DNA of 64,000 nucleotides, taken from Pseudomonadota bacterium (GTDB lineage Bacteria; Pseudomonadota; Gammaproteobacteria; Steroidobacterales; Steroidobacteraceae). The stretch lies in contig CAUJIK010000037.1 of assembly GCA_963205255.1 (NCBI GenBank), positions 1 to 64,000 on the forward strand, given 5' to 3'. The notes below the pieces were generated by a model. The model made no database searches and was not told the origin of the DNA. It was given only the letters and a program-made list of their open reading frames with translations. Positions 13,316 to 17,155 of the stretch are shown here, one piece after another (the stretch's first letter is position 1; every line of letters starts with the position of its first letter). Position numbers and translations under genes: made by a program.

Positions 13316-13319
13316 TTGC

Positions 13320-13347
13320 TTGTCATCATTTTTTCTACTCATATAGT
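13320..13347 (+). promoter_or_regulatory. Sigma-70-type promoter for the CxPHG gene pair
   Basis: TTGTCA, a 16-nt spacer and TATAGT form a good -35/-10 pair. The predicted start near 13354 gives a leader of about 50 nt before the GTG at 13403, whose GGGGGA Shine-Dalgarno is at 13392. This placement also argues against the far upstream TTG used in the ORF track. Confidence 0.55.
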
Positions 13348-13402
13348 GATGAGTAGCGAAAATGGAACGAACCAAGAATCACACATGCCGTGGGGGATCA
13401 AA

Positions 13403-14182
13403 GTGAAGGCACGCATCGCATTACTGACACTGGCTGTCATCGGAAGCAGTTCCATGACGGCCAACGCCCAACAGGCCGGCGCAAATCTGTATCGTCCGGC
13501 ACCTCCTCTTCCCGAGCCCATCTACCGCGCACAGCGCTCTTCCATGGAAGACAAGCGCGATCTGTCCGGCGTGTGGTCCATCCGGGACTACAACCGCCGC
13601 TTCCGCACCCCGACGGGCACGCTGCCGCCGCTGACCGCCAAGGGCAAAGCCGACCTCGATGTACGCATCAAGGCCGAAACCGACGGCACCCCGATGGCCG
13701 ACGCCTCCGCCTACTGCTGGCCGCACGGAATTCCGCGCGTGATGAACTCGCCGTATCCCATCCAGTTCATCCATTCACCGGGCAAGATCACCATCGTTCA
13801 CGAGGTGGCGCACAACATCCGTCAGATCCGCATGGATCAGCCCATGCCTGAGAAAGTGCCGACCAGCTTCCTCGGCTACTCCGTGGGCCGTTGGGATGGC
13901 GACACGCTGGTGATCGAGACCAAGGGCACCGATCCGCGCACCTGGATCGACGAGGAAGGCATCATCCATTCCGATCAGCTCTACACGATCGAACGCATCC
14001 GCAAGACCGAGAACGGGGAAAACCTGGAGAACGAAGTAACCATCATCGATCCGGTGTACTTCACCCGTCCGTGGGTCAAGAAGATCAACTACGCCTGGCG
14101 CCCGGACCTTCGCATACAGGAATACGTGTGCGAAGAGAACAACCGCAACCACCCCGAAGACGGCTTCACCGTAGCCAAGTGA
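13403..14182 (+). CDS. Exported CxPHG-motif protein of unknown function, paralogue 1
   Basis: Secreted protein of about 259 residues. After a signal peptide (KARIALLTLAVIGSSSMTANAQQ) come LSGVWSIRD, CWPHGIPRVMNSPYPIQ, WDGDTLVIETKGT, IIHSDQLYTIERI, IDPVYFTRPW and a C-terminal EYVCEENNRN. The same set of motifs recurs in the next gene, so the two are paralogues. I recognise this layout from uncharacterised exported proteins of oligotrophic Proteobacteria and Acidobacteria; no activity is known. The two conserved Cys (in CxPHG and EYVC) could form a disulfide. GTG at 13403 is chosen for its GGGGGA SD at 5-nt spacing; ATG at 13385 is the alternative. Likely co-transcribed with the next gene, 14 nt away. 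Confidence 0.75.
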   Translation: MKARIALLTLAVIGSSSMTANAQQAGANLYRPAPPLPEPIYRAQRSSMEDKRDLSGVWSIRDYNRRFRTPTGTLPPLTAKGKADLDVRIKAETDGTPMADASAYCWPHGIPRVMNSPYPIQFIHSPGKITIVHEVAHNIRQIRMDQPMPEKVPTSFLGYSVGRWDGDTLVIETKGTDPRTWIDEEGIIHSDQLYTIERIRKTENGENLENEVTIIDPVYFTRPWVKKINYAWRPDLRIQEYVCEENNRNHPEDGFTVAK

Positions 14183-14196
14183 CCAGGAAAGAAACC

Positions 14197-14877
14197 ATGC
14201 TCAAGAAAATGTCTGTGACATTCCTGGCCTGCGCGGCGCTGGCCATTCCCCTGATGGCGCAAGGCGCGCCCTCCCTGGCCGGCATCTGGATAGTCGACGG
14301 AGACATGTCCACGGTGAAAACCATCGATGGCAAGCTGCCGCCGTTCAAGGCCGAGGCCAGGCGCCAATACAACGCCGCGATCGCCGCCCGCAAAGCCGGC
14401 AAGACCACCGATCCGGTGGCCCAATGCCTGCCGCACGGCCTGCCCCGCCTGATGTTTGCCCCGTATCCGTTCGAGATCCTGGAAGAGCCCAAGCAGATCT
14501 CTTTCATCCACGAAGCCCAGCACATGCCGCGCCTGGTCTACCTGGGTGAAAAGCTGCCGTCCATGGACGATCTGGATCGCAACTGGATGGGCCAGTCCGC
14601 AGGCAACTGGGACGGCGACACGCTGGTAGTGGATTCGGCCGGCTTCAACAGCGAGACCACTCTCGACCGCGCCGGCATCCCCCACTCCGAGGATCTGGTG
14701 ATCCAGGAGCGCTTCAGCCTGAAGGATGGCGGCAGGATCCTCGAGAACGAGATCACCATCACCGACCCGCAAACCTTCACAAGGCCATGGAAGACCAAGG
14801 CGAGGTTCAAGAAGATGGACTCGTCCTACTGGCTCAAGGAATACGTCTGCACCGACAAGAACCCGGAAGCAGGCTAA
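14197..14877 (+). CDS. Exported CxPHG-motif protein of unknown function, paralogue 2
   Basis: 226 residues, with signal peptide MLKKMSVTFLACAALAIPLMAQGA. It repeats the motifs of its upstream neighbour: LAGIWIVDG, CLPHGLPRLMFAPYPFE, WDGDTLVVDSAGF, IPHSEDLVIQERF, ITDPQTFTRPW and EYVCTDKN. The ORF track starts in the upstream gene; ATG at 14197 follows AGGAAAG by a good distance. The pair sits divergent to a TonB receptor and ends at a long hairpin, so it looks like a bicistronic unit of periplasmic or outer-membrane-associated proteins. A role with the receptor is inference from position only. Confidence 0.8.
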   Translation: MLKKMSVTFLACAALAIPLMAQGAPSLAGIWIVDGDMSTVKTIDGKLPPFKAEARRQYNAAIAARKAGKTTDPVAQCLPHGLPRLMFAPYPFEILEEPKQISFIHEAQHMPRLVYLGEKLPSMDDLDRNWMGQSAGNWDGDTLVVDSAGFNSETTLDRAGIPHSEDLVIQERFSLKDGGRILENEITITDPQTFTRPWKTKARFKKMDSSYWLKEYVCTDKNPEAG

Positions 14878-14885
14878 AACGGCGA

Positions 14886-14933
14886 GCAGCGGAGCGGTGC
14901 GGCCCCAGGGAGGGGGCAGTGCCGCTCCGCTGC
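14886..14933 (+). terminator. Long hairpin after the CxPHG gene pair
   Basis: GCAGCGGAGCGG and CCGCTCCGCTGC form a perfect 12-bp stem, extended inward by GCCCC/GGGGC. It begins 9 nt after the stop of the second CxPHG gene. No T-run follows, so termination may be Rho-assisted or the hairpin may stabilise the 3' end. Confidence 0.55.
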
Positions 14934-14951: not shown

Positions 14952-14984
14952 TGGTGGACGGGCGAGATTCGAACCGGCCCGCCC
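14952..14984 (-). other. tRNA-minihelix-like element (acceptor stem + T-arm + ACCA)
   Basis: On the minus strand the 33 nt read GGGCGGG, CCGG, TTCGAAT, CTCG, CCCGTCC, ACCA. GGGCGGG and CCCGTCC pair over 7 bp (one G-T) like an acceptor stem. CCGG/CTCG make a short imperfect T-stem around a canonical TTCGAAT T-loop, and the molecule ends in discriminator A and CCA. The D and anticodon arms are absent, so this is not a functional tRNA. It starts 25 nt past the parE stop, in the same orientation as tRNA-Ser at the other end of the insert. A deleted tRNA relic or an attachment-site copy are the two simplest readings. Confidence 0.55.
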
Positions 14985-15009
14985 CCGCCCAATACCCTGC
15001 GGCTGCGCG

Positions 15010-15300
15010 CTACAAGTGCAACGAAGTGAGCATGCGCTCGTGCAGGATGCGAATGACGGCGATGCCGTAGTCCGTGGTGATGTAGTAGATGAAATGATGC
15101 TCCGCTGCCCGGCGCCGGTATCCCGGACGGACATGTCCGCAGTCCTGCCCTTGTGACGGCGCTTCAGCGAGGATTGCGCAAGCATCTTCGAGCACCCGCG
15201 CGTAGTTCACGGCCTGCTCCAGTCCCCATTCCCTCACGGTGTAGTCGAAGATGCCGTCCAGGTCGTCCTGAGCGGCAAGACTCAGGCGATATTCGGCCAC
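15010..15300 (-). CDS. parE: ParE-family toxin
   Basis: A 96-residue RelE/ParE-superfamily toxin. The N-terminus AEYRLSLAAQDDLDGIFDYTVREWGLEQAVNY and the C-terminal HHFIYYITTDYGIAVIRILHERM are the ParE pattern. ParE toxins poison DNA gyrase and are neutralised by ParD. It lies 6 nt downstream of parD in the usual antitoxin-first order and is presumably co-transcribed. Length is normal, with no frameshift, so the system is probably intact. Confidence 0.9.
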   Translation of the reverse strand: MAEYRLSLAAQDDLDGIFDYTVREWGLEQAVNYARVLEDACAILAEAPSQGQDCGHVRPGYRRRAAEHHFIYYITTDYGIAVIRILHERMLTSLHL

Positions 15301-15306
15301 GGGCGG

Positions 15307-15555
15307 TCAGCCGCCGTGTTGGGCCACTTTCCGACGCGTAAACGCTGCGAAATTGAACGACTGTGGTTCGCCGCTGCGCTCACCATCAATCAGCGCCTGA
15401 CGCAACGCCTCGACCTGCCCGGCACGCTCCTGCTCACGACGGATGAGGTCGCGGATCAACTCACTATCGTTGGTGAAGCGCCCCGCCTGCACTTGGGCGG
15501 CGATCCAAGCGTCCTGTGTCTCGGTCACAGTGATGGTCTTGCGCACGGTGCTCAT
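15307..15555 (-). CDS. parD: ParD-family antitoxin
   Basis: An 82-residue antitoxin. The N-terminal ribbon-helix-helix (TVRKTITVTETQDAWIAAQV) binds DNA as a dimer and represses its own operon. The disordered C-terminal part (ALIDGERSGEPQSFNFAAFTRRK) should wrap the ParE toxin. ATG at 15555 (MSTVRK) is chosen over the upstream TTG; it has GGAGGG about 11 nt before. Upstream are a good promoter and a 10-bp inverted repeat that overlaps the -35 box, fitting autoregulation. Confidence 0.9.
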   Translation of the reverse strand: MSTVRKTITVTETQDAWIAAQVQAGRFTNDSELIRDLIRREQERAGQVEALRQALIDGERSGEPQSFNFAAFTRRKVAQHGG

Positions 15556-15623
15556 GGCTTGGCGACCCTCCAACAATCAAATGGCCGAATCAACTGCTGC
15601 AATCGACAGCAAATGCGTAGATC

Positions 15624-15652
15624 ATCATACTATTTCATACTTTCCAAGGCAA
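15624..15652 (-). promoter_or_regulatory. parDE promoter
   Basis: Read on the minus strand: TTGCCT, a 17-nt spacer and TATGAT (5 of 6 to TATAAT). Transcription would begin near 15617, about 60 nt before parD. The -35 box lies in one arm of the inverted repeat at 15641-15682, so ParD or ParDE binding there would block RNA polymerase. Confidence 0.6.
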
Positions 15653-15682
15653 ATGCCGTACGCATGTCGTACGCCTTGGAAA
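15641..15682. repeat. 10-bp inverted repeat, candidate ParD operator
   Basis: TTTCCAAGGC and GCCTTGGAAA are perfect inverted copies separated by 22 nt, and inside them GTACG and CGTAC form a second pair of arms. The nested palindromes overlap the parDE -35 region. Autoregulatory operators of ribbon-helix-helix antitoxins are usually palindromes in just this place. A recombination site is the alternative. Confidence 0.6.
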
Positions 15683-15883
15683 ACATAAAGCGGTCTTTGC
15701 CACCCTTCCGCTATAGAAAACTGCTTGCCTGCTCAAGAGCACCTTGGCCGATGATCAATAAACGCCTGGATGCGCAGACAAGAAACAGCGGCATGATGAC
15801 TACTATGTTCCCCAAGAAACGCCGACCAACAGGATTGTTCTATCCACTTCGCATCAAGGGCACTTTCCGCCAGAGGACATAGC

Positions 15884-16840
15884 ATGAACCTGCTGGAAAA
15901 TGCCGCTGGTTCGATTCGGATCGGTGTTCAAGATTATCAGTCTGAGGACGGCGCCCGGGTTCTCTCAGGCGTGCGAAATATTACTGCCGGGGTTCTCCTC
16001 CTCTTCAAGGAGAAGTTGCGGCGACTATCGCCGAGAGACTCGAACGACGTTCTACTGAAAGAGCACATGGTGCCCGGCAAGAACCCCACCGGAGAAGTCG
16101 TCTTCATTGGTCATGGAAAGCGGACCGCGACCCTACCCCAGATAAAGGACCGCTTCGCAGCGCTGGGAGTACACCTCGATTGGAAGCCTGTAGAAAGCAT
16201 AGTCAGAATTCGCAATGACATTGAACACTACTTCACCGGCGAGACTCCGGCGAAGCTACGGGAACTGGTTGCAGATACCTTCGTCATTGTCCGCGACTTC
16301 TCGACTCAACACCTTGATACAACCCCCCTGGCACTTCTTGGGGAGGACACTTGGCAGCACCTCCTGAACGTAGCCAGCGTTTATCAGAAGGAACTGGAGG
16401 AGTGCCGCACCGCCCAAGCGGAACTCGAATGGCCGAGCGAAATCGGAGGCGATCTCGAGGAGCATTTGCGCTGCCCCAAGTGCGATTCAGAGCTTATTAG
16501 GCCGAACATTGAAGAAAGCGCGAGTGTCTTTCAGGTGTCCTTCTCGTGCTCATCATGCGGAAAGGAATCTGAATACGCGGATGTGGCGGAGGTCGCCGTC
16601 CAAGCGCGCTATTTCGGAGATGCCTATATTGCGATGACGGATGGCGGGGAGCCCCCATATGACATGTGTCCTGAATGTACAAAGGACACCTACATTCTCG
16701 AGTGCGGCATGTGTGCCGCCTGCGGATACAGGCTCAGTCATCTCAAGTGCGCTATATGCCACACCAACCTAACTGTTCACGATCAGGTTCCCGCCGGCCT
16801 ATGCAGCTATCACGCATGGCAGGCCCAGAAGGACGACTAG
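15884..16840 (+). CDS. HEPN-motif protein with C-terminal zinc ribbons, unknown function
   Basis: 318 residues. The N-terminal half is helical (ITAGVLLLFKEKLRRLSP near residues 33-50) and carries R110-NDIE-H115, the Rx4-6H signature of HEPN-superfamily RNases and toxins, in the helix-breaking context VRIRNDIEHYF. From residue 197 on it is cysteine-rich: CPKC/CSSC (197-225), CPEC (262-265), CGMCAAC (274-280), CxxC (289-292), then C307 and H310, about three zinc ribbons. No signal peptide or membrane segment. The gene has visibly lower GC (31 of 60 in the line at 16201) than its neighbours and sits beside parDE and a tRNA. RNA cleavage in a defence or toxin role is inference; a non-enzymatic RNA-binding role is possible. 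Confidence 0.65.
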   Translation: MNLLENAAGSIRIGVQDYQSEDGARVLSGVRNITAGVLLLFKEKLRRLSPRDSNDVLLKEHMVPGKNPTGEVVFIGHGKRTATLPQIKDRFAALGVHLDWKPVESIVRIRNDIEHYFTGETPAKLRELVADTFVIVRDFSTQHLDTTPLALLGEDTWQHLLNVASVYQKELEECRTAQAELEWPSEIGGDLEEHLRCPKCDSELIRPNIEESASVFQVSFSCSSCGKESEYADVAEVAVQARYFGDAYIAMTDGGEPPYDMCPECTKDTYILECGMCAACGYRLSHLKCAICHTNLTVHDQVPAGLCSYHAWQAQKDD

Positions 16841-16975
16841 CTGTGAAGTATCAGGACGTTATTCCTGGTTGAAGGGTTGCTCATTCCGGGAAGCTCTGGC
16901 TTACCACGGCGAGATCACCATTCGCGGCATTTATGGTCGATACGAGATCGCCTGAACAGGCTTGGTACGGAAAAT

Positions 16976-17063
16976 TGGCGGAAGGGGTGGGATTCGAACC
17001 CACGAACGGTTGCCCGTTGCCGGTTTTCAAGACCGGTGCAATCGACCACTCTGCCACCCTTCC
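16976..17063 (-). tRNA. tRNA-Ser (anticodon UGA)
   Basis: Minus-strand 88-nt tRNA starting GGAAGGGTGGCAGAGTGG and ending CCCCTTCCGCCA, with CCA encoded. The acceptor arms GGAAGGG/CCCTTCC pair, the T-arm GGGTTCGAATCCC is canonical, the anticodon loop CTTGAAAA gives UGA, and the long variable arm (GCAACGGGCAACCGTT region) is that of serine tRNA. Its 3' end faces the lower-GC insert at 14.95-16.84 kb. Confidence 0.97.
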
Positions 17064-17155
17064 AGGCCCGCGATTCTAGCAAAGCCCTTCCCCCGGGGCT
17101 TGGCGGTACAGGTCGATCTTGCGACACTCTCCCGGAGAAACGGGGAGCAGCTTCC

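What the first reader, a model, noticed from the sequence alone, without database searches (positions are those of the whole stretch)
14952..16978. Small tRNA-bounded insert carrying parDE and a HEPN/zinc-ribbon protein
The stretch between the tRNA-minihelix-like element and the 3' end of tRNA-Ser(UGA) has lower GC in its centre (23/60 and 31/60 G+C in the two lines counted), a toxin-antitoxin pair, and an unrecognised protein with a HEPN-type Rx4H and about three zinc ribbons. Both borders carry tRNA 3'-end-like sequence in the same direction (TGGYGGAMGGG...ATTCGAACC), as expected for an element that inserted in a tRNA gene. No integrase is present, so it would be a defective or helper-dependent element. 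Defence-type cargo beside tRNA genes is well known; this combination I have not seen described.
Basis: partly seen in the sequence, partly recalled or inferred. Interest (0 to 1): 0.75.

Follow-up and report, generated by a model that had tools for sequence, protein, structure and literature searches.

The report
Small tRNA-bounded phage-defence island remnant
A 2-kb stretch of foreign-looking DNA beside a serine tRNA gene carries a common toxin-antitoxin pair and a predicted RNA-cutting anti-phage protein of an already catalogued but untested family; it looks like a worn-down mobile defence island, a known kind of thing with a still uncharacterised cargo gene.

Summary
Between 14952 and the 3' end of tRNA-Ser(UGA) lie a ParDE pair (15010-15555) and a 318-aa protein (15884-16840) with a HEPN-type RNxxEH motif and three zinc ribbons. 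The protein is not unrecognised: it matches PADLOC's single-gene phage-defence candidate PDC-S64 (E 4e-47). Relatives occur in about a dozen phyla, on plasmids and in viral contigs. The Rx4H motif is invariant in 62 of 62 aligned relatives, the zinc cysteines in 61 of 62, and their neighbours are rich in known defence genes. The insert reading is supported, though no empty site was found. In a congener the same parDE DNA (89% identical) abuts a tRNA-Ser-3'-like site beside a broken integrase. In Dyella silvatica a PDC-S64 gene sits directly behind an integrase in a 6.7-kb element in tRNA-Ser(UGA), bounded by 61-bp repeats. Here the left border is degenerate (18/25 to the tRNA end), the block has no integrase and the left flank is rearranged. 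Most likely it is an immobile relic of a tRNA-Ser(UGA) defence island, whose main cargo is a HEPN RNase acting by abortive infection (inferred). New member of a known kind.

The parts
14886..14933 (+). GC-rich inverted repeat (21-nt arms, 86% complementary), terminator-like, after the CxPHG gene; just outside the insert
   Evidence: the repeat finder I1
14952..14981 (-). degenerate tRNA-3'-end-like / attachment-site-like left border (GGTTCGAATCTCGCCCGTCCACCA on the minus strand)
   Evidence: 18/25 to the tRNA-Ser 3' end; shares GATTCGAACCGGCCCG with the site beside a broken integrase in congener G001; no other copy in the genome within 3 mismatches
14992..15658 (-). parDE module with its upstream region, conserved as a block with congener G001:C142 (89% nt identity)
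   Evidence: alignment
15010..15300 (-). ParE-family toxin, 96 aa, GTG start
   Evidence: PF05016 E 3.8e-15
15307..15555 (-). ParD-family antitoxin (RHH)
   Evidence: PF03693 E 1.3e-16; TIGR02606 above its cut-off
15634..15689 (.). imperfect palindrome (17-nt arms, 22-nt gap) in the divergent intergenic region, where homology to G001 ends
   Evidence: the repeat finder I2; alignment
15884..16840 (+). PDC-S64-family protein, 318 aa: N-terminal HEPN-type helical domain (about 1-180, RNDIEH at 110-115) and three zinc ribbons (about 195-310)
   Evidence: PADLOC PDLC05058 E 3.8e-47; invariants in 62 homologues; AlphaFold2 pLDDT 92.3
16976..17063 (-). tRNA-Ser(UGA), intact, 3' CCA encoded; right border and presumed integration target
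   Evidence: ARAGORN

Best explanation
The block 14952-16975 is a relic of an integrative element (tyrosine-integrase type) that entered at the 3' end of tRNA-Ser(UGA) and has lost its integrase. It carries a ParDE pair, most simply an addiction module that selects against loss of the block, and a PDC-S64 protein. PDC-S64 most likely acts as a single-gene abortive-infection system. Its N-terminal HEPN domain would be a metal-independent RNase, probably a dimer with R110/H115 of each subunit in the cleft; the C-terminal triple zinc ribbon would hold it silent and recognise a phage-derived nucleic acid or protein; on infection the RNase would cut host or phage RNA and stop phage growth. Shown here: sequence features, conservation, defence-gene neighbourhoods, horizontal spread, and PDC-S64 relatives in tRNA-targeting elements. 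Inferred: RNase activity, dimerisation, trigger, abortive outcome, and ParDE's role.
For: tRNA 3' end facing the block. Left attachment-like sequence homologous to the one next to an Arm-DNA-bind_3 integrase fragment in G001, where the same parDE follows and two such repeats flank Fic (PDC-S04) and MBL (PDC-M48B) genes. Dyella silvatica: tRNA-Ser(UGA) - integrase - PDC-S64 (ATGA overlap) - 61-bp direct repeat 6.7 kb away; the same tRNA-Ser/integrase/PDC-S64 order in two more Dyella contigs. Vibrio rhodolitus: PDC-S64 gene about 240 bp from the 3' end of tRNA-Arg(UCU). PDC-S64 next to Gabija, AriA/Old, AbiL, BREX, MADS, Lamassu, PrrC and other PDC genes and, on plasmids, AbiE, Shedu, TIR and TA genes; 210 and 148 PADLOC families in two batches of 95 and 96 neighbours against 14 for 37 ordinary window genes. 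Rx4H invariant in 62/62, cysteines in 61/62, the exception being a HEPN-PIF1 fusion. Motif in register with HepT RNases and weak hits of family members to HEPN Pfam models. Patchy tree mixing phyla. Role of R and H in HEPN RNases: PMC3710099.
Against: No experiment. Left border only 18/25 to the tRNA-Ser end, so the bounds are inferred through G001, itself a fragmented genome with 5% contamination. No empty site; left flank rearranged. No Foldseek hit to a solved HEPN at E below 1e-3; the HepT profile match covers 58 columns at probability 24%, and comparisons with DUF3644 proteins were weaker. ParDE and PDC-S64 were not seen together elsewhere, so they may have arrived separately.
Confidence: 0.66

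Rival explanations
1. No single element: ParDE and the PDC-S64 gene reached a tRNA-Ser hotspot by separate events or rearrangements, and the left tRNA-like motif is a chance T-loop match.
For: ParDE has near-normal GC while the HEPN gene does not; homology to G001 stops at 15658, between the two; left motif 18/25; flanks rearranged.
Against: The left motif shares 16 consecutive bases plus flanking similarity with the G001 site, and the same parDE lies beside both. Stepwise assembly is also compatible with an island that grew by successive insertions.
Confidence: 0.22
2. PDC-S64 is not an immune effector but a zinc-ribbon RNA- or DNA-binding regulator or RNA-processing protein of mobile elements; its HEPN-like fold serves binding, and linkage to defence genes reflects shared transport.
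For: The zinc ribbons resemble those of ribosomal eL37, TFIIB-type factors and transposases; relatives occur in prophage-like viral contigs and on plasmids; no constant partner gene.
Against: Invariance of R110, E114 and H115 in all 62 aligned relatives points to catalysis; neighbours are strongly defence-biased.
Confidence: 0.15
3. PDC-S64 protects its own mobile element against competing plasmids or phages (inter-element exclusion) rather than the host as such.
For: Carriage by plasmids, viral contigs and tRNA elements.
Against: Not separable from host defence by sequence; the same biochemistry is expected.
Confidence: 0.2

Closest known systems
PADLOC PDC-S64 (single-gene phage defence candidate)
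   Same: Sequence match over nearly the whole profile, E 3.8e-47.
   Different: The library entry carries no description; HEPN motif, three zinc ribbons and carriage by tRNA elements are described here. A search of the paper library for the name found nothing.
Tha (tail-activated HEPN anti-phage system of S. aureus prophages; PMC11087260)
   Same: Single-gene HEPN protein of similar size (301 aa); motif RNSIMH against RNDIEH; borne by mobile elements; its H270A mutant loses protection.
   Different: HEPN is C-terminal in Tha and N-terminal here; zinc is not mentioned in that paper; the trigger here is unknown.
HEPN families DUF3644 / EC042_2821 (PMC3710099)
   Same: Some family members weakly match DUF3644; EC042_2821 is reported with a zinc ribbon and in restriction-modification operons.
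   Different: Direct profile comparison with two DUF3644 proteins was weak; no REase or wHTH part here.
Integrase-only tRNA defence islands and P4-like hotspots (PMC10121019, PMC9122126)
   Same: Small islands at tRNA genes with defence cargo and unclear means of moving.
   Different: No integrase and a degenerate outer border here.
ParDE type II toxin-antitoxin
   Same: Toxin and antitoxin match PF05016 and PF03693, adjacent genes.
   Different: Nothing notable; a place next to an attachment-like site is usual for mobile DNA.

Membership tests
PDC-S64 (PADLOC PDLC05058) | Match to the family HMM over most of its length | tested here: met
   E 3.8e-47, profile 9-285 of 305
PDC-S64 (PADLOC PDLC05058) | Anti-phage activity | not testable with these tools
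   Needs phage challenge; the family is listed as a candidate only
HEPN superfamily | Conserved Rx4-6H with a polar residue after R | tested here: met
   RNxxEH; R110, E114, H115 in 62/62, N111 in 59/62
HEPN superfamily | Profile or fold similarity to known HEPN domains | tested here: inconclusive
   Helical domain with the motif at the end of a helix; HepT match P 8e-4 in register but probability 24%; weak Pfam hits; no PDB fold match at E<1e-3
HEPN superfamily | Metal-independent RNase activity | not testable with these tools
   Biochemistry needed
tRNA-targeting integrative element | tRNA 3' end at one border | tested here: met
   tRNA-Ser(UGA) 16976-17063(-)
tRNA-targeting integrative element | Direct repeat of the tRNA 3' end at the other border | tested here: inconclusive
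   18/25 only; homologous to the G001 site
tRNA-targeting integrative element | Integrase gene in the element | tested here: not met
   No such ORF in the block; hence 'relic', not 'element'
tRNA-targeting integrative element | Empty site in relatives | tested here: inconclusive
   Flanks rearranged in the congeners examined
ParDE | Adjacent ParD (RHH) and ParE genes | tested here: met

The most novel reading that the evidence does not exclude
PDC-S64 is a distinct class of single-gene HEPN RNase immunity in which a triple zinc ribbon is itself the sensor of phage nucleic acid, with tRNA-Ser(UGA) elements as one of its carriers in Gammaproteobacteria.
Probability: 0.2. Interest if true: 0.6.

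Novelty: new member of a known kind. Interest (0 to 1): 0.42.

Why it matters
It gives a concrete, testable domain reading (HEPN RNase plus triple zinc ribbon, with named catalytic residues) to a widespread defence candidate for which I found no published study, and shows one route by which it moves: small elements at tRNA-Ser(UGA). The Dyella elements, with integrase and intact repeats, are better starting material for experiments than the worn copy in this window.

Tried and rejected
Exact copy of the left border elsewhere in the genome: none within 3 mismatches. Empty site with cstA and CxPHG abutting: not found; the CxPHG pair lies in another region in congeners. Solved-structure relatives by sequence: only zinc-ribbon similarity, mainly ribosomal eL37. 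Fold search with the whole protein and with the HEPN domain: no significant match; the nuclear-receptor hits are low-TM helical noise. DUF3644 profile comparison: weak. Phage records: no relative. A constant partner gene for PDC-S64: none; apart from close relatives, the most recurrent neighbour is an ABC-type ATPase in five loci, three of them Methylobacter-type relatives. The 13-sequence alignment was too diverse to seed the collection scans; a 5-sequence one worked. Papers on PDC-S64 by name: none.

Full report
What is there. The window holds one tRNA gene, tRNA-Ser(UGA), at 16976-17063 on the minus strand, so its 3' end faces left into the block. Going left from it come the 318-aa gene (15884-16840, plus strand), a 330-bp divergent intergenic region, ParD (15307-15555) and ParE (15010-15300) on the minus strand, and a tRNA-3'-end-like motif at 14952-14981. 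ParE and ParD are ordinary family members (PF05016 E 3.8e-15; PF03693 E 1.3e-16). GC falls to 0.48-0.56 over 15550-16900 against about 0.65 outside. The 318-aa gene has GC3 0.63 (z -2.25) and low codon adaptation (z -1.95); ParDE is within the normal range. So the block is compositionally mixed.

The protein. PADLOC's model PDC-S64, a single-gene phage-defence candidate, matches residues 2-284 at E 3.8e-47. Matches were found in 3 of 369 genomes of the class, the window's own included, at 56 loci in the species-representative genomes, on 13 plasmids and in 4 viral contigs, but in none of the phage records. Among 62 aligned sequences R110, E114 and H115 are invariant, and the cysteines 197, 200, 222, 225, 262, 265, 277, 280, 289, 292 and 307 are present in 61 or 62. 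The one exception, L136, keeps the HEPN-like part but is fused to a PIF1-type helicase. The model from 44 sequences has mean pLDDT 92.3. Residue 310, the twelfth ligand, is Cys in most of the first 13 aligned and His here.

Is it HEPN? The motif RNxxEH fits the published rule: Rx4-6H with a polar residue after R, H and R needed for cleavage in RNase L and PrrC, and an added acidic residue in many families (PMC3710099). Some family members weakly hit DUF3644, RiboL-PSP-HEPN, HepT-like and Cthe_2314-like HEPN models. Profile comparison with HepT aligns the motif in register (P 8e-4, but probability 24% over 58 columns). Foldseek found no solved structure at E below 1e-3 for either the whole protein or residues 1-180. 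I take HEPN as likely, not proven.

Defence association. Up to two nearest genes on each side of 54 loci (191 proteins, taken as two batches) matched 210 and 148 PADLOC families at E 1e-5. Among them are Gabija GajA/GajB, AriA, Old, AbiL, a reverse-transcriptase system, MADS, HmaB/HmaC, Lamassu LmuB, PrrC, HerA and several other PDC families; BREX BrxC and RloB appear in Pfam. As a rough control, 37 ordinary genes of the window matched 14 families. The counts are of families, not genes, so they are indicative only. On plasmids the neighbours include AbiE, Shedu, TIR, YhaV/PrlF and RelE/ParE genes. No partner gene is constant, in keeping with a single-gene system. The tree mixes phyla: the window protein falls in a supported set of 11 that includes a cyanobacterium and a Bacteroidota MAG, a sign of horizontal spread.

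Is it a tRNA insert? Three lines of evidence. First, congener G001 carries the parDE block (window 14992-15658) at 89% nucleotide identity. There it lies to the right of AGGGGTGGGATTCGAACCGGCCCG, whose first 18 bases are those of the window's tRNA-Ser 3' end, and to the left of that lies an integrase fragment (Arm-DNA-bind_3, E 4.7e-27). A second such repeat sits 4.6 kb away, and between them are a Fic gene (PDC-S04) and an MBL gene (PDC-M48B). The window's left border shares GATTCGAACCGGCCCG with that site. Second, Dyella silvatica: tRNA-Ser(UGA), then a tyrosine integrase, then a PDC-S64 gene whose start overlaps the integrase end, and 6.7 kb on a 61-bp direct repeat that begins with CCACTCTCTCCGCCA of the tRNA end. 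Two other Dyella contigs show the same order. Third, a Vibrio PDC-S64 gene lies about 240 bp from the 3' end of tRNA-Arg(UCU). Of 47 loci scanned, 3 hold a tRNA, and in all 3 its 3' end faces the gene.

Limits. The left border itself is only 18/25 to the tRNA-Ser 3' end. No empty site was found: in G002, G004, G005, G006 and G008 the CxPHG pair lies beside cytochrome-oxidase/ubiA-type genes, and the tRNA-Ser 3' flanks that could be read (3-10 kb in G002, G003 and G005, a few hundred bases or less in G004 and G006, none in G007) do not resemble the window's. So the left part of this region has been rearranged, and moved DNA may extend past 14952. G001 is a fragmented genome with 5% contamination, so C142 might not belong to it.

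How it most likely works. By analogy with Tha, a single-gene HEPN anti-phage protein whose H270A mutant fails (PMC11087260), I propose a silent RNase, released when the zinc-ribbon part meets a phage product, which then cuts RNA and stops infection. The trigger and the role of the zinc ribbons are guesses. ParDE would act as an addiction module; this is textbook reasoning, not tested here.

Novelty. Candidate defence genes of the PDC set are described as unvalidated single-gene systems found by 'guilt-by-embedding' (PMC12988326), and integrase-bearing defence islands at tRNA genes are well known (PMC10121019). Verdict: a real object of a known kind (relic of a tRNA defence island) with a cargo gene of a catalogued but unstudied family. 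New member of a known kind.

Noticed in passing
window 17064-17155; L061, L062: In congeners G002 and G003 a thiamine-pyrophosphate-dependent enzyme gene (about 560-590 aa, acetolactate-synthase-like by its sequence) lies between cstA and tRNA-Ser(UGA), and L063, L066 and L067 have a gap of the same size there; in the window only about 90 bp separate the two.
   Followed up: partly
L061, L064 and L066, within 200 bp of the tRNA-Ser(UGA) 3' end: Downstream of tRNA-Ser(UGA) in G002, G005 and G006 lies a partial tRNA-Ser-like repeat with GC-rich hairpin sequence.
   Followed up: no
L136 5980-7407: The HEPN part of PDC-S64 is fused to a PIF1-type helicase in an alphaproteobacterial MAG, without the zinc ribbons.
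   Followed up: partly
L068 2729-7348: Two tRNA-Ser-3'-like repeats in G001 flank a 4.6-kb set: an NYN-type protein (by sequence), Fic (PDC-S04), MBL (PDC-M48B) and an integrase fragment; it looks like a small defence element.
   Followed up: partly
window 15634-15689: Imperfect palindrome exactly where parDE homology to G001 ends; could be an operator, terminator or recombination trace.
   Followed up: no
window 13316-14874: The CxPHG-type protein family is much expanded in this genus (28 matches in this genome, 12-35 in congeners); function unknown.
   Followed up: no
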